NCBI RefSeq assembly: GCF_016767715.1
Contig: NZ_CP050145.1
Location: forward strand, 4,030,001-4,094,000
Reading direction: 5' to 3'
Source of the DNA: Mycobacteroides chelonae
GTDB taxonomy: Bacteria > Actinomycetota > Actinomycetes > Mycobacteriales > Mycobacteriaceae
DNA length: 64,000 nucleotides
The translations under genes and the position numbers were made by a program. This document shows positions 588 to 45,056 of this stretch, in pieces. How positions within the stretch are numbered: the stretch's first letter is position 1; each line of letters opens with the position of its first letter. Below the pieces are notes generated by a model. The model was not told the origin of the DNA and ran no database searches. It saw only the letters and a list, made by a program, of their open reading frames with translations.

Positions 588-603
588 GGGTACCTCGCTA
601 CTC
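588..603. promoter_or_regulatory. Inverted-repeat box GGGTA-N6-TACTC (copy 1)
   Basis: GGGTA (588-592), CCTCGC, TACTC (599-603). It lies 91 bp before the ATG at 695. Six other copies of the RRGTA-N6-TACTC pattern occur at promoter positions in this window (2879, 7164, 7263, 9115, 12048, 45041). Binding protein unknown; the LuxR-type regulator at 3229-5940 is the best local candidate. Confidence 0.55.
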
Positions 604-631
604 GCGTCATCGGGACCGTGTCGGATCAGGA

Positions 632-658
632 TCGTTGTGTACCGCTTTTACACAACGA
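632..658. promoter_or_regulatory. Perfect 10-bp inverted repeat, candidate operator or 5'-UTR hairpin
   Basis: Left arm TCGTTGTGTA (632-641), 7-nt loop CCGCTTT, right arm TACACAACGA (649-658), with no mismatch. It lies between the GGGTA-N6-TACTC box and the ribosome binding site of the gene at 695. Low GC and perfect symmetry suit a transcription factor site; if transcribed it would form an RNA hairpin. Confidence 0.5.
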
Positions 659-694
659 AACCGAGCCACACATCCCGTGCCGGGAGGAGTCGAA

Positions 695-1126
695 ATGATT
701 ACGCGAACTGCCCCGTACAGCGTCTCGCCGGACGTCAGCCTGCTCATCCTGGTCGAGGCCGGCCCCGCACATGACCTTCGTGAGCATCCCGGTGCAATCA
801 ATTCGGCCACCCCGATTTTCGAGGCTATTCGGGTGGCCGGGCACACGGTCGCACCCCTTCACGCCAATGCCGCGGGTGTACCGCCCGAGCTACGGTCCAT
901 CTTCGTGGTCACCGCGCCTGCCTGCCCCGAGTTCGAGCGGCTCGCCGAACATCTGCGGGCCCTTCCCGGTGTTGCTGCGACCTATCTGGAATGTGACGAC
1001 GCCCGCCCGGGGCCTGCCACCGTCAGTGCCATCCCGGTATCGATCGGTGCCCAGCGCCGGGCACTGATCCGCCGTGTCACCCACCGCGGTGTCGGTGCGC
1101 TGGGCGCGCGCCGGCTGGCCGGCTAG
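695..1126 (+). CDS. Hypothetical protein, 143 aa
   Basis: The ATG at 695 is preceded by GGGAGGAG at a suitable distance, so it is chosen over earlier in-frame starts near 572 that have no ribosome binding site and would run through the promoter palindrome. No signal peptide or membrane helix is evident. The sequence alternates hydrophobic and polar stretches as in a small alpha/beta protein (VSLLILVEAG, IFVVTAPACP) and has a basic C-terminus. I do not recognise a family. It follows a universal-stress gene and has a copy of the 16-bp box in its promoter, so it probably belongs to the same regulon as the proteases downstream. Confidence 0.65.
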   Translation: MITRTAPYSVSPDVSLLILVEAGPAHDLREHPGAINSATPIFEAIRVAGHTVAPLHANAAGVPPELRSIFVVTAPACPEFERLAEHLRALPGVAATYLECDDARPGPATVSAIPVSIGAQRRALIRRVTHRGVGALGARRLAG

Positions 1127-1133
1127 TAGACAC

Positions 1134-1171
1134 CCGGTGGGGGCGGTGCGCTGTCGCACCGCCCCCACCGG
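1134..1171. terminator. Strong GC-rich hairpin between convergent genes
   Basis: A perfect 17-bp stem (1134-1150 with 1155-1171) closes a CTGT loop, 8 bp after the stop of the gene at 695 and 13 bp before the end of the opposite-strand gene at 1185. There is no T run on either side, so it would act as a hairpin-only bidirectional terminator, as is common in mycobacteria. Confidence 0.7.
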
Positions 1172-1184
1172 CTTAGGTGACCCG

Positions 1185-1409
1185 TTACTGGATACCCGCA
1201 TTGGGCGGGGCGATATGCGTCCGCCCCTCGGGTTCCACCACCATTACTCCGGGGATATCCACCAGCGCAGCGGCATTCGCGATATCACCGGATACCACGC
1301 CGATCTCGCGGTGCACCTGCATACCGGCCATGCCGGCGGCCCGCAACGCGGCCACCGTGCCGTCGAAATCACGCTCTTCGATCGTCACGGTGACCCGCTG
1401 CGCCGTCAC
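1185..1409 (-). CDS. Stand-alone I9/propeptide-like small protein, coupled to the S8 protease
   Basis: GTG at 1409 overlaps the TGA of the upstream protease gene (GTGA), giving a 74-residue protein by translational coupling. It reads as a beta-alpha-beta-beta-alpha-beta unit: VTVTIEERDF, a helix ending LRAAGMAGM, then IGVVSGDI, a short helix, and IPGVMVVEPE. The IG-V-SG and IPGV--VE pattern is that of subtilisin propeptides (inhibitor I9 family), which fold their protease and inhibit it. Here it is a separate downstream gene, not an N-terminal propeptide. Inferred role: chaperone or inhibitor in trans for the 1406-2680 protease. The start is supported by the overlap only; the family call is by pattern. 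Confidence 0.65.
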   Translation of the reverse strand: MTAQRVTVTIEERDFDGTVAALRAAGMAGMQVHREIGVVSGDIANAAALVDIPGVMVVEPEGRTHIAPPNAGIQ

Positions 1410-2680
1410 TGTGGGGCCTGTACTAGCCCGGCACCCACATCCACGGCCGGAACGTTGAGCGGTGCCGCGTGCTGCAACAGCACCGCCCAGAGCTGCCGGC
1501 CGGTGAGCCCCGTGGCCTCGCACCAGAGCGCCGCGATACCGGACACATGGGGCGTGGCCATGCTGGTTCCGCTGATCGAGTTGTAGCGCTTCGGCATCGG
1601 CCACGCGGAGTACACATCGACACCCGGTCCGGCAAGGTCGATGCGGCCGGCAGCCTTCGTCTTGGTGCTCGAACGCGCCGAGAACCAGCCCGGGTTCAAG
1701 GACGAATCCACCGCGGCGATGGCCATGATCGACCGGCTGTTCGCGGGCACGCCGACGAAGCCGTAGTTTCCGATCCTGCGGTTGGCGTTGTTCCCCGCCG
1801 CGGCGATAATCAGCGAACCACGGTCCAGCGCACGCTGACCCACCGCCTCATAGGCGAGGGACGTCTTATCGACGTTGGCGCCCAACGACATCGAGATGAC
1901 GGCGCAGTTGTTGGCCACCGCCCAGTTGATGCCCGCGAGAATACCGCCGTCGGCCCCCGACCCGGCGTTACTCAGCACCTTGCCCGCGAAGATCTCGGCC
2001 TCGGTCGCCGCTCCGTAACGACGACTCCCCCGCGGGGATCGCGGTCCGCACGAGGTACCGATGCAGTGTGTGCCGTGCCCATGCCCATCGTCGGCGCTCT
2101 CGCCGTCGATGAACGACTGCATGGTCACGTGACGCTTCTTGAAGTCCGGATGTGCGGCGTCGAAGCCCGTGTCCAGCACCGCCACCCGAACCCCGCGGCC
2201 GGTCTTTGAACTCGTGTCTGTTCTCGTGGCCTGCAGGCCCCACGTCGACGAGTCGTTATCGGCATAGGCAGCGGCGAGTTCTTCGACGGTCGCGGTGTCG
2301 GCCTGCAACCGCGCGAAGAGGTCGGAGACACCATGCTGGTAGCCGCTGAGATATTCGGCGGAGGTGACCGTGAGTGCGTGATGGATCAGCTCCGGTTCCA
2401 CGGATAACACCGTGCCGCCGGCCGACGCCGCGGCCTGAAGTGCCATGGTCTGCTCCGGGTCGGAATCCACGACGGCCAGACCGAGCTCGTCGAACACCGT
2501 GGCATCGGCGTCGACGACGGCGCTGATATCCATCGCTTGATTCTCAAAATCGCTGCTGTGTACGATGTTCGAGATCCCCGCGATACCTGCAAGCGTGGTG
2601 ACGTTGTTTCCGCGCGCCGTTGCCGGTGCGAAGACAACCACTTGTCTTCCTGTGTAGATCTGCGAGTCGGTGTTAGTCAT
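1406..2680 (-). CDS. Subtilisin-like serine protease (peptidase S8)
   Basis: A 424-residue protein with the full S8 catalytic set: Asp170 in VAVLDTGFD, His202 in DGHGHGTH, oxyanion Asn297 in AAAGNN and Ser373 in SGTSMATPH. Residues 1-150 form an extra N-terminal region that may act as a prodomain. There is no signal peptide or membrane segment, unlike the secreted mycosins, so it is probably cytoplasmic or leaves by an unrecognised route. ATG at 2680 is preceded by a purine-rich GGAAAGGA. The next gene on the strand is an I9-like protein coupled by a 4-bp overlap. The nearest copy of the 16-bp box (2879-2894) is about 200 bp upstream. Confidence 0.93.
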   Translation of the reverse strand: MTNTDSQIYTGRQVVVFAPATARGNNVTTLAGIAGISNIVHSSDFENQAMDISAVVDADATVFDELGLAVVDSDPEQTMALQAAASAGGTVLSVEPELIHHALTVTSAEYLSGYQHGVSDLFARLQADTATVEELAAAYADNDSSTWGLQATRTDTSSKTGRGVRVAVLDTGFDAAHPDFKKRHVTMQSFIDGESADDGHGHGTHCIGTSCGPRSPRGSRRYGAATEAEIFAGKVLSNAGSGADGGILAGINWAVANNCAVISMSLGANVDKTSLAYEAVGQRALDRGSLIIAAAGNNANRRIGNYGFVGVPANSRSIMAIAAVDSSLNPGWFSARSSTKTKAAGRIDLAGPGVDVYSAWPMPKRYNSISGTSMATPHVSGIAALWCEATGLTGRQLWAVLLQHAAPLNVPAVDVGAGLVQAPQ

Positions 2681-2878
2681 TTCCAGGTCCGTCCTTTCCT
2701 GACGTACGTGATGGGAAGCCGTAGACGCCCAACGGGAGATAGACGCACTAGCTCGGCTACCAGCAATGGTCGGCAGCGTCGCGCGATTTCGAACGAGTGA
2801 TCCACTACCTGCATTTGGGCGCGGTCGGTGCCGCCCCGGCGAGGCCGCAGCGCGTCATCTCATCGCCCGCCAGGAACG

Positions 2879-2894
2879 AAGTAGCCCGCTACTC
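2879..2894. promoter_or_regulatory. Inverted-repeat box AAGTA-N6-TACTC (copy 2)
   Basis: AAGTA (2879-2883), GCCCGC, TACTC (2890-2894), in the 276-bp divergent gap between the S8 protease (start 2680, minus) and the small membrane protein (start 2957, plus). It is 62 bp from the plus-strand start and could serve either gene. No convincing ORF was seen in the rest of the gap. Confidence 0.5.
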
Positions 2895-2956
2895 GTGCGG
2901 GTACCGGCCCGCGAGACCTACCGTTTCAGCAGACCCATCACCCAAGGGAGCCGATC

Positions 2957-3202
2957 ATGACAACGCTTGAACGACAAGCAATCCGGCAGCCGTCACCGAT
3001 ACCCACGACCAAGGTTGCGGCCAGTGGCACCGCCGGCGCGATCTCGGTCGTGCTGGTCTTCGTCCTCGGCAAGTTCAATGTCGAGATACCCGGAGACGTC
3101 GGCTCGGCCATCACCGTCCTCTTCTCCGTCGCATCCGGGTACTTGGTGCACGAACGCACCGTTCTGCAGCCACCGGATGCGGAGAACGCCGCCGACGAAT
3201 GA
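2957..3202 (+). CDS. Small holin-like membrane protein, 81 aa
   Basis: ATG at 2957 follows AAGGGAG with good spacing. After a polar N-terminus with TTKVAASGTAG, two hydrophobic segments follow: roughly residues 23-38 (AISVVLVFVLGKF) and 46-63 (VGSAITVLFSVASGYLV), separated by an acidic turn, with a polar tail. This layout resembles small holin-like proteins found beside lysis genes of mycobacteriophages, but there is no endolysin here and the protein stands alone. It carries the 16-bp box 62 bp upstream. Alternative: an unrelated two-helix membrane protein. The lysis role is speculative. Confidence 0.6.
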   Translation: MTTLERQAIRQPSPIPTTKVAASGTAGAISVVLVFVLGKFNVEIPGDVGSAITVLFSVASGYLVHERTVLQPPDAENAADE

Positions 3203-3228
3203 ACCGCCGCGGGCAACGGGCGGTACGC

Positions 3229-5940
3229 CTATTCCTGCGGGTTCGCCAGGTCGCTCCACACGATCTTGGCAAGCTGATCACGGTCTGCGACATCGAGTTT
3301 GATGCACGCCCGGTAGATGTGGCCCTCGATGGTCCGCACCGACAGCGTGAGGCGCTCGGCGATCTCGCGATTGCACAACCCCTCCCCGATGAGCGCCGCG
3401 ATCTCACGTTCACGTGCGGTGACCGGCAGCGGGCGCGCGGCGGCCCGGATCGCGGGCGTAGCGGCACCACCGCATTGACCTGCGATCCGCAGTGCACGCG
3501 CAGCGGATTCGGCGCTCTTGCTCCGGTCTCCATCGCGACCGCGTAACGCCACCGCCTGCGCTGCGGCATCCGCGGCTGAGAGCAGCAGGCCCGCGTTCTC
3601 GAACTCACCACTCACCACATCCAGCGCCGCGGCATCGGAGGCACCGACGGCGACCGCATGCCGCGCATACAGCTGCACCAGCGGACCATGCACGCGCGGG
3701 ACGAGCGACCCGATGCGGCGACCCACGGTCCGGTCACCGAACCGCGCCGCATGGTGCAGGGCCTCGGCCTCCACCGCGTATTGGCCCGCGGTGTGTGCGG
3801 CGTCGGCCGCGCGCCGGGCGATATCGACCGCCGACCGGTCTGCACCGCGCGCGGCCGCAAGCCAGGATTTCGCGATCAACAGCTGGGGGTCGTGCAATGC
3901 GACGAACTGTCCTGAGTGTTCTCCGGATTCAGTCAGCACGCGCTCGGCATCTTCGACCTTGCCGAGTGCGGCGTAGGCGCGGGCCAGCAATAGCCGTGCG
4001 GGCAGCTGCCAAGGCAGTGGCTTCTCGGCATTGAGCGCGGCCAGCGCCTGTTCGATCGACGATATCGCCGTCGGGAAGGCGCCACGGTGCACGGCAACCA
4101 AACCGGCCATGATGCGCGCTATCGCCCACGCCAGAAACTGCCCGGCCGAGGAGAATTCGGTGTATTCCGTGACCCGGCGGTCGGCCAGCCGGAGCTGCCC
4201 CGTGTAGACAAGTGCCAGCACATCGCAGTAACGCACCATCACCGCGATCATGCCGTCGGTGGATCTTTTCTGCGCACGGCACCTCGCGGCGATCGGCTCG
4301 AACTCGTCGCCGCGGCCAGCGACGGGCAGCGCGAGCCCGATACCGAACGCCGCGAATTCCACCGCCTGCCGGGGAGCCTCCGGATCCGACAGCACCAGCG
4401 TCGCCGCCGCCAGCCCCTCGTCGAACTGGTTCTCGTGCACGGCCAACGCCGCCCCCGTCGCGTCGACGACCAGTTTCAGGGCGGGATGTTGCACCCTTTC
4501 ACGCAGCAGTGCCATCAGCTCGTGTGCACGCCGCACATCGCCCATCGACCAGAACGCGATGGACACCAGCGGAAGGCCCCACAGGACCAGCGAGAGTTCA
4601 TCGAGCTGGTCCGGATCGAACTCGGCGAGCACCTGCTCGGCTTCCTCGGGCCGGCCCTGCCACAGCAGAGCGCGCGAGAGCACCTCGGCCGCGCGCAGGC
4701 CTCCGTCACGTTCCACCGCGCAGCGCGCCAGATGCTCACCCACCGGCAGGTTGGACAGATACACCGCGTCCTTCGCGGCGGAGACCAGGAGGGCCGGGTC
4801 CGTGGCCTCGTCGCTGCCGACCGACAGCTGCGCGAGCCGGATGCGCTTGGCAGCCGAGTCGATGTCACGCTCGCGGAGTGCCCGCACCAGCTGACCGCGC
4901 AGACGCCGGGCCGATGCGGTGCCCACTCTGCGCCGGATCACCTCGCCCAGCATCGGATGGCTGAACCGCACATTCATCCGCCGGCCGTCGGCTTCGACAC
5001 GGACGAAGCCGCTGAGCTCGGCACCGTCCAGAGCATCGCCACCGGCGATCTCGCACAATGTGTCGAGATTGAGCGGTTCACACAAGGACAGCAGTTTCAG
5101 CACGTTGAGTACGTCGCCGTCCAACTGTTCGAGGCGATCTCCGAGCAGCGCGGCCAGCCCCGAGGGGACAACCGTGTTACCGCGCAGTTGCCACACGCCG
5201 TTGACGGCGGTGAGGGATCCGGCCTCGACGGCCCCTTCCACCAGATGTCGCAGGAACAGCGGATTTCCACCGGATGACTCCCACATCACGTCGGCGCTCA
5301 GGCCTTCGAGGGCTCCGCCGAGCACCGATTCCACGAGGGCGACACTCTGCTGCTTGGTGAACGCCTCGAGTTCGAACCGGCGCAGGTAATCGTCCTTCCA
5401 TAATGCGGTGACCGCATCGGGAACGGGCTCGCCGCTACGCACGGTGGCCACCAGCCGGCCCGCATGGCCGACCGCGATCTGATGCAGCAGAGTCGCCGAC
5501 AGATCATCCAGCAGATGAGCATCGTCGATCCCGATGATCGGATGTGGCGTCGCGACAATGGATTCCCGCGCCGCAGCGATGAGCGCAGCCGGGTCACGCG
5601 ATCCGGTTGTCTGTATCCAGTGTGCGAACACGCCCAGCGGAATGTTCCGCGACGACTCGGTACACGCCACCCAGCGAACCTGGCATTCCAGTGAGTCGGT
5701 GACCGTGCGCGCGAGGGTGGTCTTGCCCACTCCCGCCGAGCCGACCAGCACCACACCGCACGACAGGCTGTCCGACAGCGTCGCGCGGACAGCCTCGAAT
5801 TCGTTTGGGCGGTCGAGCAACTGCCAGCTCCCCGACATGGAAAAAGAGTTTAGATCGCGACGGCGGTTTGCGTGGGCCAGTCCGGGGGCCGGTTTCTCCG
5901 GCGCGGCTGGTTTGGTGATCGCACGTGTCATCGCAACCAT
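3229..5940 (-). CDS. LuxR-family transcriptional regulator with AAA ATPase domain (LAL/MalT-like)
   Basis: About 903 residues. A Walker A motif GSAGVGKTT lies near residues 67-75 and a Walker B-like IIGIDDAH near 136-142. A long helical, TPR-like middle follows, then a C-terminal GerE/LuxR helix-turn-helix (LPVTAREREIAALI to RTIEGHIYR, residues about 838-880). This is the large ATP-dependent LuxR class, which senses an inducer and activates transcription. The ATG at 5940 is 1 bp after the stop of the catalase-like gene, so the two are one operon; starts at 5931 or 5838 are possible. The operon promoter carries the GAGTA-N6-TACTC box at 7164, making this the best candidate to bind that box and regulate itself. 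Confidence 0.88.
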   Translation of the reverse strand: MVAMTRAITKPAAPEKPAPGLAHANRRRDLNSFSMSGSWQLLDRPNEFEAVRATLSDSLSCGVVLVGSAGVGKTTLARTVTDSLECQVRWVACTESSRNIPLGVFAHWIQTTGSRDPAALIAAARESIVATPHPIIGIDDAHLLDDLSATLLHQIAVGHAGRLVATVRSGEPVPDAVTALWKDDYLRRFELEAFTKQQSVALVESVLGGALEGLSADVMWESSGGNPLFLRHLVEGAVEAGSLTAVNGVWQLRGNTVVPSGLAALLGDRLEQLDGDVLNVLKLLSLCEPLNLDTLCEIAGGDALDGAELSGFVRVEADGRRMNVRFSHPMLGEVIRRRVGTASARRLRGQLVRALRERDIDSAAKRIRLAQLSVGSDEATDPALLVSAAKDAVYLSNLPVGEHLARCAVERDGGLRAAEVLSRALLWQGRPEEAEQVLAEFDPDQLDELSLVLWGLPLVSIAFWSMGDVRRAHELMALLRERVQHPALKLVVDATGAALAVHENQFDEGLAAATLVLSDPEAPRQAVEFAAFGIGLALPVAGRGDEFEPIAARCRAQKRSTDGMIAVMVRYCDVLALVYTGQLRLADRRVTEYTEFSSAGQFLAWAIARIMAGLVAVHRGAFPTAISSIEQALAALNAEKPLPWQLPARLLLARAYAALGKVEDAERVLTESGEHSGQFVALHDPQLLIAKSWLAAARGADRSAVDIARRAADAAHTAGQYAVEAEALHHAARFGDRTVGRRIGSLVPRVHGPLVQLYARHAVAVGASDAAALDVVSGEFENAGLLLSAADAAAQAVALRGRDGDRSKSAESAARALRIAGQCGGAATPAIRAAARPLPVTAREREIAALIGEGLCNREIAERLTLSVRTIEGHIYRACIKLDVADRDQLAKIVWSDLANPQE

Positions 5941-5941
5941 C

Positions 5942-7066
5942 TCAGTCCGGTAGATCCTGAACCCCGGCCGGCTCCATCCGCGACACACCGTTCTTCTCAT
6001 GCCGAAAGTTGCTGGAGGCCTCGTAAACCCGAAGTTTCAACCTGTTGATCGACCCCAATGGCCGATGCGCGGCCAGGGCGCGCCATGAATTGAAGGACAG
6101 TACGTCGTCGCCGAACACCCGCCTCTTGTCACCATATGAATCTTGCACGGGGAAGACGATTTTGGCGATTCCCCGATGCGGGGAGTCCCCTTCCGGCCAC
6201 GCGACGGTGGCATCTTCCAGGGGCATGGTCTTCTCGTCGGTGCACAGTTGCGCCCTCAGTTCGTACTCAGCACTGTTGTGCCGGAAGAACTCTGATACCA
6301 GGTGGCGGAACTCGTCGTCGGCGATGTCGTCCGGCAGAAGTACCCCTTCGAGGTCCCGCACGGACTTCGAGAGCGGTACGTAACTGAGCTTGGCCACATA
6401 CTCTCCGTACCGCAGCGGCGCCGAGGAATAGAACGTGTCACCGAGGATGTGGGTGTTGGGACGAACGAACACGGCCACCGATTCTGGCAGTGAGAGTCCC
6501 ACGCGTGGAAGCAGTTTCGCCACCCCGCCGAGAAGGTTGCTACCCAGTCTCAGCGCGGTGTCCGGCAGCCGTGCCAGCAACCAGGCCGTGGGCATCCCCC
6601 GCCGTAGATATGCTTTCGCGTCGGCGAAGAGGAACTCGCGGTGGGTGACCAACACGAAATCCTGGGTGGTGGCCTCGTCATCGGGGAGCGTCCGCGGGCC
6701 CGCCACACCCAGGACCTTGATGCCCAGGCCCCGCACGCCCCGGATCCGGTCGCTGCGCAGCAGGCCAGACGTGGTGGACAACCTGGAGATGATCGGATAA
6801 CTACCGGGCGTTGCGAACATGCCCTGGCGTAGGTGCGGTGGCAGGTCCGGATAGACCGTCAGCTCCCCGCGCAAGATGCCGTGGCTCTTCGCGTGCGCAT
6901 CACGAACGGCATGCCGATACTTCCGGAAGGCCCGCTGATTGTTCCTGTGCAGCACCTTGACGATCTTGTCGATGGCTTCCTCCTCGCCGGGAGGTGCCGC
7001 GTCCATGTTCTCGTTGTACCGAAGGTAGGTACGCGTCGCTTCGATCGATTCATCGGTGGCGCCCAT
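5942..7066 (-). CDS. Catalase-related haem protein (mini-catalase / allene-oxide-synthase-like)
   Basis: 374 residues from the ATG at 7066, chosen because GGGAGGA lies 10 nt upstream. The SHGILRGELTV segment matches the distal-His region of catalases, and RLKLRVYEASSNFR near the C-terminus carries the proximal haem Tyr. The length is shorter than true catalases and matches the catalase-related family that includes coral allene oxide synthase and M. avium MAP-2744c. In VLVTHREFLF the position usually holding the distal Asn appears to be Thr (alignment from memory). Divergent from a cyclooxygenase-like dioxygenase, so it may transform fatty acid hydroperoxides and not hydrogen peroxide. Co-transcribed with the LuxR regulator. 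Confidence 0.85.
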   Translation of the reverse strand: MGATDESIEATRTYLRYNENMDAAPPGEEEAIDKIVKVLHRNNQRAFRKYRHAVRDAHAKSHGILRGELTVYPDLPPHLRQGMFATPGSYPIISRLSTTSGLLRSDRIRGVRGLGIKVLGVAGPRTLPDDEATTQDFVLVTHREFLFADAKAYLRRGMPTAWLLARLPDTALRLGSNLLGGVAKLLPRVGLSLPESVAVFVRPNTHILGDTFYSSAPLRYGEYVAKLSYVPLSKSVRDLEGVLLPDDIADDEFRHLVSEFFRHNSAEYELRAQLCTDEKTMPLEDATVAWPEGDSPHRGIAKIVFPVQDSYGDKRRVFGDDVLSFNSWRALAAHRPLGSINRLKLRVYEASSNFRHEKNGVSRMEPAGVQDLPD

Positions 7067-7163
7067 CGCGGTCCGGTCCTCCCGTATTAGTGGTCCGGGA
7101 CGGTCGATATCCATCGGACACGGTGACGTTCTCAGTGTCGTGAATGCCGGAGGTGCCGCGCAT

Positions 7164-7179
7164 GAGTACACGACTACTC
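7164..7179. promoter_or_regulatory. Inverted-repeat box GAGTA-N6-TACTC (copy 3)
   Basis: GAGTA (7164-7168), CACGAC, TACTC (7175-7179), 97 bp upstream of the catalase-like/LuxR operon start at 7066. With copy 4 it brackets the divergent promoter region. Confidence 0.65.
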
Positions 7180-7262: not shown

Positions 7263-7278
7263 GAGTAGCGCAATACTC
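7263..7278. promoter_or_regulatory. Inverted-repeat box GAGTA-N6-TACTC (copy 4)
   Basis: GAGTA (7263-7267), GCGCAA, TACTC (7274-7278), 36 bp before the ATG of the haem dioxygenase at 7315. It is an exact match to copy 3 in both arms and spacing, 99 bp away. Confidence 0.65.
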
Positions 7279-7314: not shown

Positions 7315-9120
7315 ATGGCGAAAAAGAGTGGACCCGCCACATCAGCCACCACATTGGCCTCGTGGCTTGCAACACGAATTGATCGGTCGGTCGGGTGGTC
7401 ACGCCTGCCCACGGCATTCGGCATCGCAGTGCTCATCGGGCTCCGTAACGCGCTGCGAGCCGACAATCTGTTCGATACGGGGCGGGCGCCGGGTGGATCA
7501 CCGCCGCCGGAGGACGCCGCCTACCGCAGTGCCCGGACGTTGGACGGCACCTACAACAACCTCGAACATCCGCTGATGGGGTCGGTCGGCAGCCGGTTCG
7601 GGCGTAACGCGCCCCTTGCCCAGACCTTCCCCGAGTCCTCCGAACAACTCCTGGACCCGAACCCGCGGCTGATCAGCCGCAGGCTGCTGACCCGCGACGA
7701 GTTCATTCCGGCGACAACGCTGAACGTGCTGGCCGCGGCATGGATCCAATTCGAGGTCCACGACTGGTTCAGCCATAACACCGTCGAAGCCGAGCCATGG
7801 ACGGTTCCGCTCGACGGGAACGATCCGTGGCCACAACGGCCGATGCAGATACGCCGCACCGCACCCGACCCATGCCCCGATGCGTCCGGTCCCCCGACGT
7901 TCGTCACGCAGGACACCCATTGGTGGGACGGATCGCAGGTCTACGGCGGCACCCGCGTCATCGCCGATGCGCTGCGCACTGGGTCCGGGGGCACGCTACG
8001 GCTGGACGGACAAGGCCTGCCGCCTGCTGATGTCGAGGCGCTGGCCAGCACATCAGAGACGGCCGTGAACTTCTGGGTCGGCCTGGCCATCCTGCATTCG
8101 CTGTTCATGCGGGAACACAACGCGATCTGCGAGCATCTGGCTGCCTGTCATCCGGAAATGTCCGACCAGGAGCTGTACGACAAGGCCCGCCTAGTCAACA
8201 CCGCGCTGATGGCGAAAATCCACACGATCGACTGGACTCCCGCCATAATCGGGCACCCCACCACGGTATTCGCGATGAACTCCAACTGGTCCGGCATTCT
8301 GGGCGAGCGCCTAGGCTACCTATTTCGGCGCCAGCCGCATAACGCTCTGCTGCGCGGTATACCCGGCTCCCCCACAAGTCTGCATAACGTGCCATATTCG
8401 CTGACAGAAGAATTTGTCGCGGTGTACCGCATGCACCCGCTAATTCCCGATCGTTTTGTGCTGCGGTCGGCCTCCGATGATTCCGTGATCGCCGAACACG
8501 AATTACCGGATCTGGCCGTACAACATGTGCGAACCCGCTTCAGCGAGACGTCGATAGAGAACATCATTTATTCGTTCGGCCGTGCCAATCCGGGTGCGCT
8601 GACTCTGCATAACTTCCCGCGTCATCTGCAACGTCTGGAGCGGCCGGACGGATCCATTTTGGACCTCGCCGCCATCGACGTTCTTCGGGTCCGTGAACGG
8701 GGCGTGCCCCGTTACAACGAGTTCCGGCGGATGCTGCGTCTGCGGCCAGTGTCTTCGTTCGGCGAGCTCACCGACGACCCCGTGGTGGCCAAGGAGCTCG
8801 CGGCCATATACGGCGATGTCGAGCGAGTGGATCTGATGGTCGGGCTGTACGCGGAGCCCAAACCGAAGGGATTTGGGTTCAGCGACACCGCTTTTCGAAT
8901 CTTCGTGCTGATGGCGTCCCGCCGGCTGGAGAGCGACAGATTCTTCACAACCGACTTCCGGCCCGAGATCTACACGCCGGAAGGCATCGCGTGGGTCAAG
9001 GACAACTCGATGCGTTCGGTGCTGCTCCGGCACTTCCCGTCCCTGGACGCCGCCCTGGACGGTGTTGCGAATCCTTTCGCACCGTGGACGCCCGTGTGGG
9101 CCAGCGGATCGACCGAGTAG
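7315..9120 (+). CDS. Cyclooxygenase/alpha-dioxygenase-like haem peroxidase
   Basis: 601 residues of the animal haem peroxidase superfamily. The distal haem His is His149 in QFEVHDWF. AKIHTIDWTPAI (near 300-311) is the conserved core segment. EFVAVYRMHPLIPDRF holds proximal His374 with Tyr371 three residues before it. A Tyr-x-x-His pair at this place is the catalytic pair of cyclooxygenases (Tyr385/His388) and plant alpha-dioxygenases, so fatty acid dioxygenation is more likely than simple peroxidase action. No signal peptide is certain, though residues 34-44 are hydrophobic. Its partner is the divergent catalase-related gene. GAGTA box and palindrome lie just upstream. Its stop overlaps the next GAGTA box. 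Confidence 0.87.
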   Translation: MAKKSGPATSATTLASWLATRIDRSVGWSRLPTAFGIAVLIGLRNALRADNLFDTGRAPGGSPPPEDAAYRSARTLDGTYNNLEHPLMGSVGSRFGRNAPLAQTFPESSEQLLDPNPRLISRRLLTRDEFIPATTLNVLAAAWIQFEVHDWFSHNTVEAEPWTVPLDGNDPWPQRPMQIRRTAPDPCPDASGPPTFVTQDTHWWDGSQVYGGTRVIADALRTGSGGTLRLDGQGLPPADVEALASTSETAVNFWVGLAILHSLFMREHNAICEHLAACHPEMSDQELYDKARLVNTALMAKIHTIDWTPAIIGHPTTVFAMNSNWSGILGERLGYLFRRQPHNALLRGIPGSPTSLHNVPYSLTEEFVAVYRMHPLIPDRFVLRSASDDSVIAEHELPDLAVQHVRTRFSETSIENIIYSFGRANPGALTLHNFPRHLQRLERPDGSILDLAAIDVLRVRERGVPRYNEFRRMLRLRPVSSFGELTDDPVVAKELAAIYGDVERVDLMVGLYAEPKPKGFGFSDTAFRIFVLMASRRLESDRFFTTDFRPEIYTPEGIAWVKDNSMRSVLLRHFPSLDAALDGVANPFAPWTPVWASGSTE

Positions 9121-9130
9121 GCGAATACTC
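9115..9130. promoter_or_regulatory. Inverted-repeat box GAGTA-N6-TACTC (copy 5)
   Basis: GAGTA (9115-9119), GGCGAA, TACTC (9126-9130). It overlaps the stop codon of the dioxygenase and lies 71 bp before the ATG of the second S8 protease, so that gene has its own regulated promoter. Confidence 0.65.
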
Positions 9131-9201: not shown

Positions 9202-10728
9202 ATGAGCAGCCCCGTGCCACGCGGGCCCAAACGGCCATCGGTCATCAGCCCGATGGTCCTGGCCGATCCGCAGACGGCACTGCCGGCCGAGGCCAACGCC
9301 TTGGTCACCGACGATGACGATCGCAGGATGGTGCTGATCGAGCTTCTCGTCGGCGCGGGCGTCGACCCCGACGATGTGCGCGACCAATTCCTGCACATGT
9401 TCCATCGGGTACTGCGCGACGAGCCGCCCACACCAACGCCCGTCGGCCGCCACTATGTACGGTGCATGCTCACCCCCGATGAAATCCAGCGTCTGGTCCG
9501 TGGCGGCGCCAAGTCCCCTACCGCCAAAAGCGCACAACAAGCGCTGCAGCTGATCCGGCGGGTGTGGCCGGATCTGGTGGTGGAGGCGCATCTGGACCGC
9601 TCACTCACCACGATCAAGGCCGATGCGGCGATCCGTACCTATGGCTCCGGCGGGACCGGAGTCGTTTGGGCCGTGCTGGATTCGGGAATCGATGCCGAGC
9701 ATCCCCATTTCGCCGCTAACGGCACCCTCACCGCGGATTCGGTGATGCCGCTGCACAAAGATTTCACGCTGTCCCCGGAGGCCTCGAAGGGGCCGCTCGT
9801 CGACGTCTACGGACACGGCACCCATGTGGCCGGCATCATCGCGGGCGAATCCCCCACCGACCCGAAACTCATCCGGATCGCGTCCACTCAACCGACCGCC
9901 GAGGGGTTGCCGGAATGGGTTCCGCGAGTGTTGGCGCAGGGGTCGCGGCTGTCCGGGGTGGCGCCGCACGCCAACCTGGTGAGCCTGAAGGTCCTCGACG
10001 ACGATGGCAAGACCCTGTCCAGTGTGCTCATCGACGCCCTCAACTATGTGCGCGAGATCAACAGCTACGGTAACGATCTACAGATCCACGGCGTGAATCT
10101 GTCGCTGGGATGCGGATGGATGCCAAGGGATTACGCGGCGGGCCAAAGCCCGCTGTGCCGCGAGCTCGATCTGCTCACCGGGTCAGGGGTGGTCTGCGTC
10201 GTGAGTGCCGGAAACCTCGGGGCCGGCACTGCTGCGGCCGGTGTGGGCGCCGCGATCTTGGGCACGACGGCCGATGTCTACGGCCAGCTCTCCACCATCA
10301 CCGATCCCGGCAATGCTGCCACCGCCATCACCGTCGGCTCGGTCCACCGGTACCGGCCGCATACCAGTGGTGTCACGTTCGACTCCTCCAAGGGGCCGAC
10401 CCTCGATGGCCGACGCAAACCCGACCTGGTGGCCCCTGGTGAGCGGATCACCTCTGCGGCAACCGGTCTCATGGCCAAGGGCATTGACCTGTTGAAGGAC
10501 GACGGCACCGAGGGGGCCGCCAACTACATCGAAGACAGCGGGACCTCGATGGCCGCCGCACATGTGTCGGGTGCGATCGCCGCATTTTTGTCGGCTCGCA
10601 CGGAGTTCGTGGGTAAACCACAAGAGGTCAAGGACATCTTCCTGAAGTCGGCCGTCGACTTGGGGCGTCACGAGTTCTTTCAGGGCGCGGGGCTTGTCGA
10701 CCTGATGCGTGCACTATCCAACACCTAG
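9202..10728 (+). CDS. Second subtilisin-like serine protease (peptidase S8)
   Basis: 508 residues from the ATG at 9202; an in-frame TTG at 9148 would add 18 residues and no strong ribosome binding site decides. The catalytic set is complete: Asp160 in VVWAVLDSGID, His205 in DVYGHGTHVAG, oxyanion Asn in VSAGNLG and Ser449 in SGTSMAAAH. Residues 1-135 form a non-catalytic N-terminal region with a prodomain-like stretch (RHYVRCMLTPDEIQRL). There is no signal peptide or C-terminal anchor. It is the first gene of a run with the hydrolase 17 bp downstream, then the trypsin-like protease and a small protein. It is not a close duplicate of the 1406-2680 protease. Confidence 0.92.
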   Translation: MSSPVPRGPKRPSVISPMVLADPQTALPAEANALVTDDDDRRMVLIELLVGAGVDPDDVRDQFLHMFHRVLRDEPPTPTPVGRHYVRCMLTPDEIQRLVRGGAKSPTAKSAQQALQLIRRVWPDLVVEAHLDRSLTTIKADAAIRTYGSGGTGVVWAVLDSGIDAEHPHFAANGTLTADSVMPLHKDFTLSPEASKGPLVDVYGHGTHVAGIIAGESPTDPKLIRIASTQPTAEGLPEWVPRVLAQGSRLSGVAPHANLVSLKVLDDDGKTLSSVLIDALNYVREINSYGNDLQIHGVNLSLGCGWMPRDYAAGQSPLCRELDLLTGSGVVCVVSAGNLGAGTAAAGVGAAILGTTADVYGQLSTITDPGNAATAITVGSVHRYRPHTSGVTFDSSKGPTLDGRRKPDLVAPGERITSAATGLMAKGIDLLKDDGTEGAANYIEDSGTSMAAAHVSGAIAAFLSARTEFVGKPQEVKDIFLKSAVDLGRHEFFQGAGLVDLMRALSNT

Positions 10729-10745: not shown

Positions 10746-12017
10746 ATGATCACGATCAAAGGATTGCCGTACTACGAACCGGATTTCAATGCCGATGGCT
10801 CACTCAACGACGCCACCGGTGACGGCGACGGCGGTCTGCCGGCCGCAGTCGCGGCCGGGGGGATCACCGATCTGTTCCTGATGTCACACGGATGGAACAA
10901 CAGTGTGACCTCCGCCCGCCAGCTCTACACCGCGATGTTCTCGTTGATCGCCGATCAGCTCGGCGGCGATACCGCCGGTGTGGCCGTCGCAGGAATCAAC
11001 TGGCCGTCGGTGCTGCTGCCCGACGACAGCCCGGACAGCGCGCTGCCCGTACCTTCCACGGGCGCGGAGCTCGCCGCGGCGCTCACGCCACGCTTCCCCG
11101 GCCAGGCCGCGCAACTGAAAAAGATGGGCGAGCTGCTCGACGAGAAACCGCAGCAGTCCGCCAAGCTCATCGAGTTCCACACCTTGGCCGCCGGACTGGT
11201 GACCACCCCCGCCCAGTCGCAGGAAGACAGCGGCGAGTCCGACATCGTGAAGGGTGATCCGCTCGCGGTGTTCGGGCAAGCCTCCGCCATGGCGCCGAAG
11301 TCGACGAGTGCCGCACAAGGACTTGGCAATCCCTTCGCCGCGCTGTGGTCGGGTGCTCGCGAGATCCTGCGCACGATGAGCTATTACGAGATGAAGAATC
11401 GGGCCGGAGTCATCGGCCAGCGCGGCCTCGGTCCGCTGCTGGCTTCACTGTCGGGCCCCGACGGCCCGCCCCGTATTCACCTCATCGGACACAGTTTCGG
11501 GGCGCGACTGGTCTCCTACGCGCTGGCAGGGCTTCCGACAACCGGCACGAGCCCCGTCAAGTCGCTCACCCTGATCCAGGGCGCCTTCTCCCACTTCACC
11601 TTCAACCGCAAGCTGCTCTTCGATCCGGGACGAGGTCCCGGCGGCCTGGCCGGGCTCGAAGAGCGTGTGGACGGGCCGCTGCTGTCGACATACACCGCCG
11701 CCGATCGCGCGGTCGGCTGGTGGTATCCGGCGGCCAGCATGCTTGCGCGACAGGACAGCCAAGCCGGACAGGACCCCTGGTTCCGCTGGGGCGCAATGGG
11801 TCACGACGGATACCAGCAGGACCCGGCCGCCACGGCACTCGAGCTTGCCGTGGCCGGAAAGCCGTACGACTTCCAGCGCGGGCATTTCTACCGGCTTGAC
11901 GCCAACAAGGTCATCGACGACGCCAGCCAATCCCAGTTCAGCGGTGCGCACAGCGATATCAAGCACCCCGAGGTGGCGTGGGCTATCGTCTCCGCCGCCC
12001 GCGCCACCCAGAACTGA
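10746..12017 (+). CDS. Alpha/beta hydrolase, lipase-like
   Basis: 423 residues. An early SHGWNN (47-52) is the HG oxyanion motif and the nucleophile elbow GHSFG places Ser250. Late His residues (for example in GHDGYQQD or KHPEVAW) could complete the triad. No signal peptide. The start follows GACGAGCGAG and lies 17 bp after the S8 protease, so the two are likely co-transcribed. Inferred: a cytosolic esterase or lipase. Given the neighbouring fatty-acid dioxygenase it could release or process fatty acyl groups, but the substrate is unknown. A peptidase of the same fold cannot be ruled out. Confidence 0.78.
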   Translation: MITIKGLPYYEPDFNADGSLNDATGDGDGGLPAAVAAGGITDLFLMSHGWNNSVTSARQLYTAMFSLIADQLGGDTAGVAVAGINWPSVLLPDDSPDSALPVPSTGAELAAALTPRFPGQAAQLKKMGELLDEKPQQSAKLIEFHTLAAGLVTTPAQSQEDSGESDIVKGDPLAVFGQASAMAPKSTSAAQGLGNPFAALWSGAREILRTMSYYEMKNRAGVIGQRGLGPLLASLSGPDGPPRIHLIGHSFGARLVSYALAGLPTTGTSPVKSLTLIQGAFSHFTFNRKLLFDPGRGPGGLAGLEERVDGPLLSTYTAADRAVGWWYPAASMLARQDSQAGQDPWFRWGAMGHDGYQQDPAATALELAVAGKPYDFQRGHFYRLDANKVIDDASQSQFSGAHSDIKHPEVAWAIVSAARATQN

Positions 12018-12047: not shown

Positions 12048-12063
12048 GAGTACCGCACTACGC
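12048..12063. promoter_or_regulatory. Imperfect inverted-repeat box GAGTA-N6-TACGC (copy 6)
   Basis: GAGTA (12048-12052), CCGCAC, TACGC (12059-12063): one mismatch from the symmetric form. It sits in the 120-bp gap before the trypsin-like protease, 74 bp from its ATG, a distance similar to copies 2 and 5. Confidence 0.5.
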
Positions 12064-41134: not shown

Positions 41135-41183
41135 GTCCTCATCATCGGCCGAACTCACGGTGCGTGCGGCATAGTTGGTCACC

Positions 41184-41989: not shown

Positions 41990-42096
41990 CCCCCGGCACC
42001 TGGCGCGGGAATACAACCGAGCCACCATGAGTTAGATTTCTTACGCCAGGCTAATGATCTGGCCATTGACATATCTCACGGGGAAGGTATTCGACG

Positions 42097-42795: not shown

Positions 42796-42851
42796 TCGTT
42801 CACGGGTAGCGTCGACCGGCCGCACATCGGGCGGCCTCTAGAGTCGGAGCC

Positions 42852-43772
42852 ATGACCCAAGACGACGGGCAGACCGCCAGTCCCTTTGACCCGACTCGCT
42901 GGCAGCCGGTGGCGGGATTCGAGGATCTGACCGACATCACCTATCACCGGCACGTCAGCCAAGGGACCGTCCGGATCGCGTTCGACCGGCCCGAGGTGCG
43001 CAATGCCTTCCGGCCGCACACCGTCGATGAGCTCTACCGAACCCTGGACCACGCCCGGATGACCTCCGATGTCGGGGCGGTGCTTCTCACCGGGAACGGC
43101 CCCAGCCCCAAGGACGGCGGCTGGGCATTCTGCTCCGGCGGCGATCAGCGCATCCGGGGCCGCACCGGCTACCAGTACGCCGGAGGCGAGACCGCCGAGA
43201 CTGTGGACCCGGGCCGGGCGGGCCGCCTGCATATTCTGGAGGTGCAGCGCCTCATCCGCTTTATGCCAAAGGTGGTGATCGCCTTGGTGAATGGGTGGGC
43301 CGCCGGTGGTGGACACAGCCTGCACGTGGTGTGCGACCTGACCTTGGCCAGCCGCGAACACGCGCGCTTCAAGCAGACCGACGCCGATGTGGGCAGCTTC
43401 GACGGTGGCTACGGCAGCGCCTACCTGGCCAAGATGGTCGGGCAGAAATTCGCCCGTGAGATCTTCTTCCTGGGCCGCCCCTACACGGCCGAACAGATGC
43501 ATCACATGGGCGCCGTCAACGAGGTCGTTGACCACGAACACCTGGAGACGGTCGCGCTGGAGTGGACCGCCGCCATCAACGAGAAGTCGCCCCAGGCACA
43601 ACGAATGCTCAAGTACGCCTTCAACCTCACCGATGACGGGCTGGTCGGGCAGCAGCTGTTCGCCGGTGAGGCAACACGATTGGCCTACATGACCGATGAG
43701 GCCGTCGAGGGCCGTGACTCATTCCTGGAGAAGCGCAAGCCGGACTGGTCGCCCTACCCCTGGCACTACTAA
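42852..43772 (+). CDS. menB: 1,4-Dihydroxy-2-naphthoyl-CoA synthase
   Basis: 306 residues of the crotonase fold. VRIAFDRPEVRNAFRPHTVDEL, GGWAFCSGGDQRIRG (oxyanion-hole region), ALVNGWAAGGGHSLHVVCDLTLAS and FKQTDADVGSFDGGYGSAYLAK with the conserved Asp and Gly. Cyclises o-succinylbenzoyl-CoA to DHNA-CoA. Slightly longer N-terminus than in other bacteria, as usual in mycobacteria (Rv0548c). Confidence 0.97.
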   Translation: MTQDDGQTASPFDPTRWQPVAGFEDLTDITYHRHVSQGTVRIAFDRPEVRNAFRPHTVDELYRTLDHARMTSDVGAVLLTGNGPSPKDGGWAFCSGGDQRIRGRTGYQYAGGETAETVDPGRAGRLHILEVQRLIRFMPKVVIALVNGWAAGGGHSLHVVCDLTLASREHARFKQTDADVGSFDGGYGSAYLAKMVGQKFAREIFFLGRPYTAEQMHHMGAVNEVVDHEHLETVALEWTAAINEKSPQAQRMLKYAFNLTDDGLVGQQLFAGEATRLAYMTDEAVEGRDSFLEKRKPDWSPYPWHY

Positions 43773-43787
43773 GACCCAAGCGCCCGC

Positions 43788-44321
43788 TCAGCACGGATTG
43801 GGCCTGCAGCGACCGCCCGACGACGGCGCGGCGACCGTGACAGTCGTCGTGGATGTGACCGTCGTGGGGACGGTGACGGTCGTCGTACTGGTGATCGTGG
43901 TCGGCACGATTTCCGTGGTTGTCTCGGTGGTGGTCAATGTCTCCGTCACGGTCGTGGTCGACGTCGACGTTACGGTTGCCGTCGAGTGGGAGGTCACCGT
44001 CTCCGTCACCGTCCTGGTCGAGGTACCGGTTTCCGTCGCGGTGACAGTCACCGGTGCCGCCGTTGGTGTGGTGGAGACCGAATTGACTACCGGCGTAGGC
44101 ACATCACTCCCCCCGCCCGCCGACTGGGCGAGCGCGACACGGGTACCCACCGCGCCAGTGCCGATCACGATGGCCACCGCCCCGGCCACCAGATACCACG
44201 TCAAGATCTGGCCTCGCAGCTGTCCGATTCCGGTCGCCACCGATCGGGGAACGTCGACATGTACCGCTCGCCGATCACGCGCGACGGAGCGCAACAGCCC
44301 GCGAACGGCCGGATCACTCAT
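43788..44321 (-). CDS. Single-pass membrane protein with Thr/Val-rich repeat tail
   Basis: 177 residues. A basic cytosolic N-terminus of about 38 residues, one membrane helix (about 40-60, WYLVAGAVAIVIGTGAVG), and an external tail of roughly 100 residues dominated by repeating TVT/TST units, ending in a Cys pair (GRCRPNPC). The tail looks like a stalk, possibly O-mannosylated. The arrangement of a small cytosolic domain plus one helix recalls anti-sigma factors. It overlaps the upstream gene by ATGA, and that gene has sigma-like features. Shares the GAGTA-box promoter at 45041. Confidence 0.75.
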   Translation of the reverse strand: MSDPAVRGLLRSVARDRRAVHVDVPRSVATGIGQLRGQILTWYLVAGAVAIVIGTGAVGTRVALAQSAGGGSDVPTPVVNSVSTTPTAAPVTVTATETGTSTRTVTETVTSHSTATVTSTSTTTVTETLTTTETTTEIVPTTITSTTTVTVPTTVTSTTTVTVAAPSSGGRCRPNPC

Positions 44322-44977
44322 CGGTCCAACCCCCGGGCATAGGCAATCGGTGCGAGAACGCCGTCGGCAACCCGGAGTTCTGCTTGCACCTGCGACGGCG
44401 TCAACCCGAGCATGTCCGAGAGATCATCGATGCCGACGTCGGCGAAGGCGCTGAGCACCGCGGCCACCCGCTGAACCTGCGTCAACTGGGACAACGGGTT
44501 TGGCCCGGCGGCGGGCCGCCCGGTCAGCGTGAGCCGCGAATGCGCCATCAGCGCATGCACAAACCAGCACAACGTGAAGATCTGGATCGACTGATGCACC
44601 GGCCCTCGCCACTTCAGGGTGGCCTGAGCGATGGCGGTTTCCATCAATCGCTTGCCGACGTCTGGGTCATCACACAGCAGGCTCGCGCACTCTTCGAAGA
44701 TCGGCTTCTGGATCTCAAATGTCCGCGCCAGCTCTTCTTCCCGCCGGGTGAGGTCGGCAGTTATCCGTAACCCGGACGGCAGACCGAATTCCACCTGTTT
44801 GATCGCAGGGAACAGCGCCAGCGTCAACGCCAGTAACCCCACAAACCCGAGCACACCCAGCAGCAGAGGGCTGTGGACAAATGGCCCAGCGGCGACCGCG
44901 GCGATCGCGACAGCGACGGGCAGCATGATGCGCGGCTGGAACAGATCCGTCCATCGTCGAGGCTCGGTCTTACACAT
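44318..44977 (-). CDS. Membrane-tethered protein with sigma-factor-like C-terminal region
   Basis: 219 residues from ATG at 44977 (RBS GAGGGG). Two adjacent membrane helices (about 18-35 and 38-57). Residues 85-150 contain LCDDPDVGKRLMETAIAQA then W-x(n)-WFVHALM, reminiscent of sigma region 2. Residues about 165-205, LTQVQRVAAVLSAFADVG followed by IDDLSDMLGLTPSQVQAEL, resemble the region 4 helix-turn-helix. Similarity is by eye and moderate. If correct it is a sigma-like regulator anchored in the membrane, released or activated with its partner 43788-44321. Confidence 0.62.
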   Translation of the reverse strand: MCKTEPRRWTDLFQPRIMLPVAVAIAAVAAGPFVHSPLLLGVLGFVGLLALTLALFPAIKQVEFGLPSGLRITADLTRREEELARTFEIQKPIFEECASLLCDDPDVGKRLMETAIAQATLKWRGPVHQSIQIFTLCWFVHALMAHSRLTLTGRPAAGPNPLSQLTQVQRVAAVLSAFADVGIDDLSDMLGLTPSQVQAELRVADGVLAPIAYARGLDR

Positions 44978-45040
44978 CGCGAACACCCCTCTATGCGAAC
45001 TGAGTGGGGCAATCGTCGCCGCAGCGTCGCGGAGAAGCGC

Positions 45041-45056
45041 GAGTAACCGACTACTC
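45041..45056. promoter_or_regulatory. Inverted-repeat box GAGTA-N6-TACTC (copy 7)
   Basis: GAGTA (45041-45045), ACCGAC, TACTC (45052-45056), 63 bp upstream of the ATG of the sigma-like gene. This is the only copy found outside the first 12 kb and links this two-gene locus to the protease/oxygenase region. Confidence 0.6.

What the first reader, a model, noticed from the sequence alone, without database searches (positions are those of the whole stretch)
588..45056. Undescribed regulon marked by an RRGTA-N6-TAC(T/G)C inverted repeat
The same box occurs seven times, each in a promoter region: 588, 2879, 7164, 7263, 9115, 12048 and 45041. Four copies are exactly GAGTA-N6-TACTC (7164, 7263, 9115, 45041); the others differ by one base. 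The genes behind them are a hypothetical protein, a protease/holin-like divergent pair, the catalase-like/LuxR operon, a cyclooxygenase-like enzyme, a second S8 protease with a hydrolase, a V8-like protease, and a membrane-tethered sigma-like pair. I searched by eye, so other copies may be missed. Half-sites inside genes were not paired.
Basis: partly seen in the sequence, partly recalled or inferred. Interest (0 to 1): 0.9.

Follow-up and report, generated by a model that had tools for sequence, protein, structure and literature searches.

The report
LuxR-type regulon of soil mycobacteria
A short mirrored DNA word marks about a dozen scattered promoters in an environmental mycobacterium, and across the genus it is enriched almost only in genomes that have one of two large LuxR-type (LAL) regulators, which points to an undescribed set of co-regulated enzymes and a readily testable regulator.

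Summary
In detail: all seven boxes exist (0.34 expected). The one-mismatch consensus is at chance genome-wide (39 hits, 50 for the reversed pattern), but a refined box, GAGTAGYSSRCTACTC, is not. In 14 related genomes 82 of 84 fetched boxes lie outside called genes (86% of positions lie inside). A -10-like element follows at +24/25 and gene starts peak 30-39 bp away, an activator-type and often leaderless layout. Five more promoters in this genome carry it. The likely regulator is the 923-aa LAL protein encoded in the cluster. Boxes occur in 50 of 51 genus genomes with this LAL (clade A) or a second one (clade B), against 9 of 37 with neither; means are 8.0, 3.7, 3.4 and 0.4 per genome for A+B, A, B, neither. 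In several species, and in Gordonia rhizosphera, a box precedes an operon of alpha-dioxygenase, catalase-like protein and LAL. Targets include proteases, lipases, haem oxygenases and LysM proteins. Binding, direction of control and inducer are inferred. The "cyclooxygenase" is closer to alpha-dioxygenase; "LuxR" here means LAL, not a quorum sensor.

The parts
588..603 (+). box GGGTACCTCGCTACTC, 73 bp before the start at 677
   Evidence: half-sites 0.99 identical against 0.79 for the rest of the region (8 sequences with the window)
677..1126 (+). 149-aa protein, no Pfam match
2879..2894 (+). box AAGTAGCCCGCTACTC, 62 bp before ATG 2957
   Evidence: flanks favour the + direction; half-sites 1.00 against 0.75
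2957..3202 (+). 81-aa small protein with hydrophobic stretches (holin-like by eye)
   Evidence: no Pfam match
1406..2680 (-). subtilase (Peptidase_S8), divergent from the 2957 gene; start 198 bp from box 2879, membership uncertain
   Evidence: orientation score is against it
3229..6000 (-). LAL-type regulator (AAA ATPase, TPR, C-terminal GerE), clade A, proposed regulator; start could be 5931
5942..7114 (-). catalase-like protein, first gene of the LAL operon
   Evidence: Pfam Catalase E 1.8e-4, below cut-off; profile to catalase 9t0l E 0.0024
7164..7179 (-). box GAGTAGTCGTGTACTC (read on - strand), 49 bp before start 7114
7263..7278 (+). box GAGTAGCGCAATACTC, 36 bp before ATG 7315
7315..9120 (+). 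alpha-dioxygenase-like haem peroxidase
   Evidence: An_peroxidase E 4.1e-111; 4kvj, named fatty acid alpha-oxidase, E 8.7e-114
9115..9130 (+). box GAGTAGGCGAATACTC, overlapping the stop codon of the previous gene, 71 bp before ATG 9202
9202..10728 (+). second subtilase (start chosen by me; gene caller took 9253)
   Evidence: mycosin model only below cut-off
10746..12017 (+). alpha/beta hydrolase-fold protein, weak match
   Evidence: E 4.4e-4, below cut-off
12048..12063 (+). box GAGTACCGCACTACGC, 74 bp before ATG 12138
12138..13082 (+). trypsin-like protease
13127..13369 (+). 80-aa carboxypeptidase-regulatory-like protein (weak match), next gene
   Evidence: a look-alike 80-aa gene follows a 313-aa gene behind a box in G041 (L239)
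45041..45056 (-). box GAGTAGTCGGTTACTC (read on - strand), 54 bp before start 44986
44318..44986 (-). 222-aa protein with an N-terminal hydrophobic stretch, no family match
   Evidence: box kept in G050 (L236)

Best explanation
The box is the operator of a regulon controlled by LAL-type LuxR regulators. In this genome the regulator is the LAL encoded at window 6000-3229, in an operon with a catalase-like protein and beside an alpha-dioxygenase, both behind boxes, so it probably controls its own operon (shown: position; inferred: control). A dimer of its GerE domains binds the palindrome A-A-n-T-C-GAGTAGYSSRCTACTC-R-T-G, centred about 43 bp before the transcription start and abutting the -35 position, and recruits RNA polymerase to a -10 element that begins 24-25 bp after the box (shown: spacing; inferred: transcription start, binding and activation). 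The targets are scattered single genes and short operons for proteases, lipases, haem oxygenases, LysM and other proteins. The ATPase module probably gates the switch with a small ligand, perhaps a lipid or lipid peroxide given the alpha-dioxygenase and catalase-like neighbours (inferred). In other species a second LAL clade reads the same box.
For: Box frequency 7 against 0.34. Refined box: 82 of 84 sites outside called genes, baseline 0.862 inside, binomial 8e-68. Start distances: 21 in 30-39 bp against 6.3 expected, none from -10 to 19 bp where random intergenic points give about 24. Flanks alone give the gene direction in 45 of 53 sites by leave-one-out; TANNNT at +22 to +32 in 15 of 53 on the gene side against 2 on the other. 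Co-occurrence: any box in 50 of 51 genomes with LAL-A or LAL-B against 9 of 37 with neither, Fisher 4e-14; means 8.00 (A+B, n=10), 3.72 (A, n=18), 3.35 (B, n=23), 0.41 (neither, n=37), reversed-pattern control 0.60, 1.56, 0.48, 0.73. 60 outgroup genomes of the order: 14 sites, control 43 (my sums); 12 of these 60 have some LAL relative at E 1e-30 or better. Operon linkage: a box within 450 bp of the oxygenase-catalase-like-LAL operon in 8 of 12 loci scanned, none for 29 shuffled half-site controls. 15 of 47 LAL recognition-helix hits have a box within 7 kb, 0.68 expected. Footprint: half-sites 0.96-1.00 identical against 0.75-0.89 for surrounding intergenic bases. Gordonia rhizosphera keeps the exact palindrome before the same operon.
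Against: No binding or expression data. Species share ancestry, so the co-occurrence P value is not corrected for relatedness. LAL-B was picked after seeing boxes beside it; without G017, G051 and G080 the B-only group still has 66 sites in 20 genomes, 19 of 20 with a box (my subtraction). Exceptions: G040 has LAL-B and no box; G006 (4 boxes, control 0), G047 (3, control 1) and G027 (2, control 2) have neither clade; G055 has a LAL with the same recognition helix and no box. Of 12 oxygenase operons scanned 4 have no box within 450 bp, and L052, left out of that scan, has none in the stretch held. Clade-A loci without the oxygenase mostly lack a nearby box: of four with a catalase-like gene but no oxygenase and enough upstream sequence, L057 has one and L058, L061 and L066 have none. 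In the A-only group the control count is itself raised (28 for 18 genomes). Six of 61 flank orientations point away from the only called gene (L109, L123, L124, L125, L142, L181 by reading; L142 is not among the 61).
Confidence: 0.72

Rival explanations
1. The box is read by another regulator (for example a NarL-type response regulator or a small GerE protein), and the LAL genes are targets of it like the rest.
For: Boxes stand before other regulator genes: a LAL of another type in L170 and, by my reading, AfsR/BTAD-type proteins in L111, L138 and L120 (BTAD tally 2 of 77). G006 and G047 have boxes without either clade. Recognition helices near TVEGHIYRA also occur in box-free genomes such as G023, G029 and G074.
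Against: It must then be gained and lost with LAL-A or LAL-B: 50 of 51 against 9 of 37, with additive counts. The 60 outgroup genomes show no excess.
Confidence: 0.18
2. The LAL acts as a repressor on the box rather than an activator.
For: The box abuts the -35 region, where repressors also sit; the LAL SCO6993 of Streptomyces coelicolor is reported as a repressor (abstract and passages of PMC9628970).
Against: The -35 position (+1 to +6 after the box) has R-T-G-C-C-like bases, not TTGACA, with a -10-like element at fixed spacing, and this layout is the usual one for activators that touch sigma region 4 (recalled).
Confidence: 0.17
3. The boxes were copied with promoters by recent duplication or by a mobile element and have no regulatory meaning.
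For: Several sites lie close together in the cluster.
Against: Listed side by side, the sites share little outside the box and promoter elements; they stand before different genes genome-wide, and half-sites are kept while neighbouring bases change.
Confidence: 0.02
4. Chance matches of a loose pattern in a 65% G+C genome.
For: The one-mismatch version is at chance over the genome (39 against 50).
Against: Refined box: 147 sites in 28 LAL-A genomes against 34 control, 82 of 84 outside genes.
Confidence: 0.01

Closest known systems
LAL (large ATP-binding LuxR) regulators, prototype MalT of Escherichia coli
   Same: N-terminal ATPase, TPR-like middle, C-terminal GerE domain, large size
   Different: MalT binds short MalT boxes in direct repeat (passages in PMC6099782 and PMC9628970); here the operator is a 16-bp palindrome with fixed promoter spacing
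SCO6993, a LAL of Streptomyces coelicolor
   Same: LAL that binds palindromic sequences, also in its own promoter (abstract and passages)
   Different: 606 aa (abstract), repressor, and by the authors' words no consensus site could be predicted; here a sharp consensus shared by many species
TpdR of Rhodococcus jostii TMP1
   Same: actinobacterial LAL activator of a degradative operon (abstract and passages)
   Different: its presumed site is one of two 15-nt repeats; no wider regulon in the passages seen
LuxR-LuxI type regulators and the lux box
   Same: inverted half-sites ending in GTA/TAC with a 6-base centre, position about -42.5 (lux box recalled)
   Different: no autoinducer-binding domain was matched; half-site is GAGTA, not CTGTA (recalled)
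Plant and cyanobacterial alpha-dioxygenases
   Same: full-length match with catalytic Tyr and both haem His positions kept (residue roles from PMC8720084 passages)
   Different: placed beside, or in one operon with, a LAL and a catalase-like protein

Membership tests
LAL regulators | N-terminal P-loop ATPase domain | tested here: met
   AAA_22 31.4 bits (cut-off 27), residues 83-176; Walker A GSAGVGKTT read in the translation
LAL regulators | C-terminal GerE (LuxR) helix-turn-helix | tested here: met
   PF00196 41.4 bits, residues 861-913
LAL regulators | large size with TPR-like middle part | tested here: met
   923 aa, TPR_19 31.0 bits, cut-off 25
MalT regulon type | MalT boxes in direct repeat | tested here: not met
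   palindromic 16-mer; 76 of 80 fetched regions hold a single box
MalT equivalog | full-length MalT model above cut-off | tested here: not met
   NF003420 37.3 bits against cut-off 537
LuxR quorum-sensing regulators | autoinducer-binding domain | tested here: not met
   no such domain among the 11 Pfam families matched
NarL/DosR response regulators | receiver domain with GerE | tested here: not met
   no receiver domain among the 11 Pfam families matched
alpha-dioxygenase | full-length similarity to a solved alpha-dioxygenase | tested here: met
   4kvj (fatty acid alpha-oxidase) E 8.7e-114 over residues 23-592
alpha-dioxygenase | catalytic Tyr and proximal and distal His | tested here: met
   Tyr and His of VYRMHPLIP and His of FEVHDW align with the same residues of 4kvj; at an offset of three the His pair are H157 and H382 named in PMC8720084 (passage)
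alpha-dioxygenase | 2-hydroperoxide formation from fatty acids | not testable with these tools
   needs an assay
catalase or catalase-related hydroperoxide enzyme | catalase fold and haem pocket | tested here: inconclusive
   Pfam below cut-off; profile match E 0.0024 over 83 positions; structure model pLDDT 48, not used
LAL-bound operator | direct binding by the LAL protein | not testable with these tools
   needs gel shift or footprint

The most novel reading that the evidence does not exclude
The regulon is an inducible attack or defence response: LAL ATPase sensors in environmental mycobacteria detect a lipid or danger signal and switch on, from one shared box, a dispersed arsenal (alpha-dioxygenase oxylipin formation, Tle1-like and patatin phospholipases, subtilases, trypsin, astacin-hemopexin, CHAT protease, LysM and peptidoglycan-binding haem peroxidase, as found across species), with two or more LAL clades feeding the same operators.
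Probability: 0.2. Interest if true: 0.85.

Novelty: new variant of a known kind. Interest (0 to 1): 0.62.

Why it matters
For the one actinobacterial LAL with footprints that I saw in print, the authors say that no consensus site could be predicted (SCO6993, passage). Here a sharp consensus, its promoter geometry and two likely cognate LAL clades follow from sequence alone, so binding and regulon membership can be tested at once. A search for four forms of the box sequence found 0 papers; listings for LAL or LuxR regulons in mycobacteria (capped at 15 of 178, 10 of 10, 10 of 107 and 8 of 294 papers) and passages of PMC3466318 and PMC4301838 showed no description of this regulon. Many target genes are unnamed, and the box groups them by condition of use. 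A fatty-acid alpha-dioxygenase under LAL control would also open bacterial oxylipin formation to genetics.

Tried and rejected
Loose consensus with one mismatch as a genome-wide detector: at chance. Refined pattern with 3 mismatches: useless (110 hits, control 261). Idea that the window-clade LAL alone explains all boxes: rejected, since G028, G041 and others have boxes without it. Idea that the recognition helix alone predicts boxes: not clean; the same or related helices occur in box-free genomes such as G040, G055, G064 and G085. Hits in G152 and G153 and some in G017 look like background: 4 of the 18 loci (given for 18 of 35 sites) lie inside genes, three of them in G152/G153 and one in G017; over both sets 6 of 102 are inside. 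BlaI of M. tuberculosis as a reader of a similar half-site was considered from memory; a listing and passages of PMC4301838 did not show its motif, and it was not tested. Anti-phage reading: PADLOC models matched only through protease domains (subtilase, IetS, RT-protease, LmuA, Avs1b) and a CARF3 model through the GerE domain; no defence system was made out. Fold of the catalase-like protein: model too poor to search.

Rows dropped before counts: one search uses 88 of the 98 genus genomes (LAL-A status was not determined for G148-G157). One search uses 47 of the 100 helix hits, those in genomes whose boxes I had listed. orientation test uses 53 of 84 sites, those with a start within 200 bp on one side only and enough flank. 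The 77 proteins are from 90 candidate first genes; 13 were left out (flanks pointing away from the gene, distant start, or very short), and only 25 of 68 matched families were listed. One search scanned 13 loci; I count the 12 with the oxygenase (8 with a box) and give L057, which has none, apart. L052 was left out and has no box in the stretch held (8 of 13 with it); in G021 the operon is cut by contig ends, with a box 72 bp before the oxygenase (L150). Of 11 clade-A loci with neither oxygenase nor catalase-like gene (L060, L063-L065, L067-L070, L072-L074) five hold some one-mismatch box in up to 20 kb, of which some look like chance. An earlier count gave 15 and 47; the recount from the output is 14 and 43.
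Full report
OBSERVATION. Seven matches with at most one mismatch stand against 0.34 expected in 100 shuffles, maximum 2. The genome (one contig of 5,061,177 bases; window at 4,030,001-4,094,000) holds only six exact GAGTA-N6-TACTC, four of them here.

WHERE IT IS FROM. The nearest named relatives by the LAL protein are Mycobacterium sp. D16Q13, D16R12 and D16Q14 and Mycobacteroides sp. CBMA 271 and LB1, 94-96% identical. I take it as an environmental Mycobacteroides-type mycobacterium (inference from these names).

REFINING THE BOX. Exact boxes in 98 genomes of the genus (160 sites against 62 for the reversed pattern) have a non-random centre: in 75 of these sites, those that the capped list showed, read both ways, position 6 is G in 69%, position 7 T or C in 87%, positions 8 and 9 C or G in 91%. 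The refined form is GAGTAGYSSRCTACTC. In this genome it adds, with at most one mismatch, 3,381,190 (before a LysM protein), 325,071 (before a 206-aa gene followed by a collagen-like one), 3,101,919 (312 aa, 77 bp) and 3,557,951 (191 aa, 73 bp); at two mismatches it adds 368,982 (DUF5995, 80 bp), while the other two-mismatch hits outside the window are uncertain. At one mismatch this genome has 7 refined sites and 4 control sites. The 191-aa promoter keeps a box in G050 (L237), and boxes of the same or nearly the same sequence occur in G151.

PROMOTER ANATOMY. I fetched 80 regions around refined boxes from 14 related genomes. Of 84 boxes, 2 lie inside called genes although 86.2% of positions do. 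A further 18 loci (of 35 sites) from six genomes had 4 inside, three of them in two genomes that look like background, so 6 of 102 in all. In 61 sites with one called gene direction the motif extends to A-A-n-T-C before and R-T-G after the box, with A at +25 (0.61) and T at +29 (0.64) after it, a -10-like element. Flanks alone predict the gene direction in 45 of 53 left-out sites; TANNNT at +22 to +32 occurs in 15 of 53 on the gene side and 2 on the other. Start codons peak at 30-39 bp (21 against 6.3 expected) and none is nearer than 20 bp. A start about 35 bp after the box fits a transcription start at the start codon, that is leaderless mRNA (inference), and puts the box centre near -43 and the -35 position just after the box. 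In the window the distances are 73, 62, 49, 36, 71, 74 and 54 bp.

CONSERVATION. In eight Mycobacteroides-type sequences, the window included, the half-sites are 0.96-1.00 identical to the window while the surrounding intergenic bases are 0.75-0.89 (five promoter regions; a sixth had only two sequences). Beyond that group the gene order is alpha-dioxygenase, catalase-like, LAL in one direction. A box within 450 bp before it, at most one mismatch, is found in 8 of 12 such loci, and in none for 29 shuffled half-site patterns; a thirteenth locus, L052, has none in the stretch held. Gordonia rhizosphera, of another genus, has the perfect GAGTAGTCGACTACTC there (L094). Clade-A loci without the oxygenase mostly lack a nearby box.

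WHO READS IT. The 923-aa protein at 6000-3229 has AAA, TPR and GerE domains and is the only match at E 1e-30 in this genome (6 of 24 candidates were scored). Orthologues of at least 49% identity occur in 28 of 88 genus genomes examined; all 28 have at least one refined box. Genomes such as G028 have boxes without it. In four genomes (G017, G051, G080, G059) a box follows the end of a second LAL within about 150 bp of its recognition helix. This clade B is at least 60% identical to its member in L227. Taken together: A and B, 10 genomes, 8.00 boxes per genome; A only, 18, 3.72; B only, 23, 3.35; neither, 37, 0.41; any box in 50 of 51 against 9 of 37. The controls are 0.60, 1.56, 0.48 and 0.73. 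Sixty genomes of other families in the order have 14 sites against 43 control. Most clade-A members seen and the seven clade-B members seen carry the recognition helix SVR(T/S)(V/I)EGH(I/V)YRAC; clade-A exceptions are G008, G033, G042 and G066. Other LALs often have ESHIYRAM or EGHLYR(L/I)F. The helix alone is not sufficient, as G055 and G040 show. Exceptions to the co-occurrence are G040, G006 and G047.

WHAT IT CONTROLS. The oxygenase matches the alpha-dioxygenase 4kvj (E 8.7e-114; rice, recalled) far better than lactoperoxidase (4.1e-38) or prostaglandin synthase (1.6e-16) and keeps the Tyr and both His positions (residue roles from passages of PMC8720084). A second alpha-dioxygenase stands near a box in G049, G021 and G077. 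Of 77 first genes behind boxes, 5 match Tle1-like phospholipase, 5 FAD_binding_3, 4 LysM, 3 animal haem peroxidase, 3 subtilase, 3 thermolysin-type, 2 P450, 1 CHAT, 1 DUF5995. Single proteins include patatin, astacin with hemopexin, and haem peroxidase with peptidoglycan-binding domains. Of the eleven proteins of this genome in that set six have a Pfam match (the catalase-like one below cut-off) and five none.

MECHANISM. Shown: the box, its promoter spacing, its conservation, its linkage to LAL genes and its co-occurrence with two LAL clades. Inferred: binding by a LAL dimer, activation from a class II position, self-control of the LAL operon, and a small-molecule inducer. A lipid or lipid hydroperoxide is my guess because of the alpha-dioxygenase and the catalase-like protein.

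NOVELTY. The kind (LAL regulator with a regulon) is known; a sharp palindromic box shared by two LAL clades with a dispersed enzyme set is a new variant. Paper searches gave nothing on this box (0 papers) or on this regulon (capped listings; passages of PMC3466318 and PMC4301838); only open-licence papers are held, and supplementary motif tables were not readable.

Noticed in passing
window 7315-9120: An alpha-dioxygenase-like enzyme in a mycobacterium, with a plant-type alpha-dioxygenase as its best solved relative; 22 of 98 genus genomes have a relative at E 1e-60 or better.
   Followed up: partly
window 5942-7114: Catalase-like protein conserved beside the oxygenase and LAL, with many invariant columns in 9 sequences but only weak catalase similarity and no usable fold model.
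   Followed up: partly
L149:3106-5085: A 660-aa protein joining an animal haem peroxidase domain with peptidoglycan-binding domains, 67 bp behind a box.
   Followed up: no
L167:1554-2927: Astacin-like protease with four hemopexin repeats behind a box in a mycobacterium.
   Followed up: no
L083:8592-9290: Glycine-rich collagen-like protein (weak match) downstream of the 206-aa box gene in this genome.
   Followed up: no
L071:5214-13836: G060 shows two copies of the clade-A LAL, each matched in two pieces, around the oxygenase and catalase-like genes.
   Followed up: no
window 1185-1409: 74-aa gene directly behind the first subtilase, without Pfam match; it could be a protease partner.
   Followed up: no
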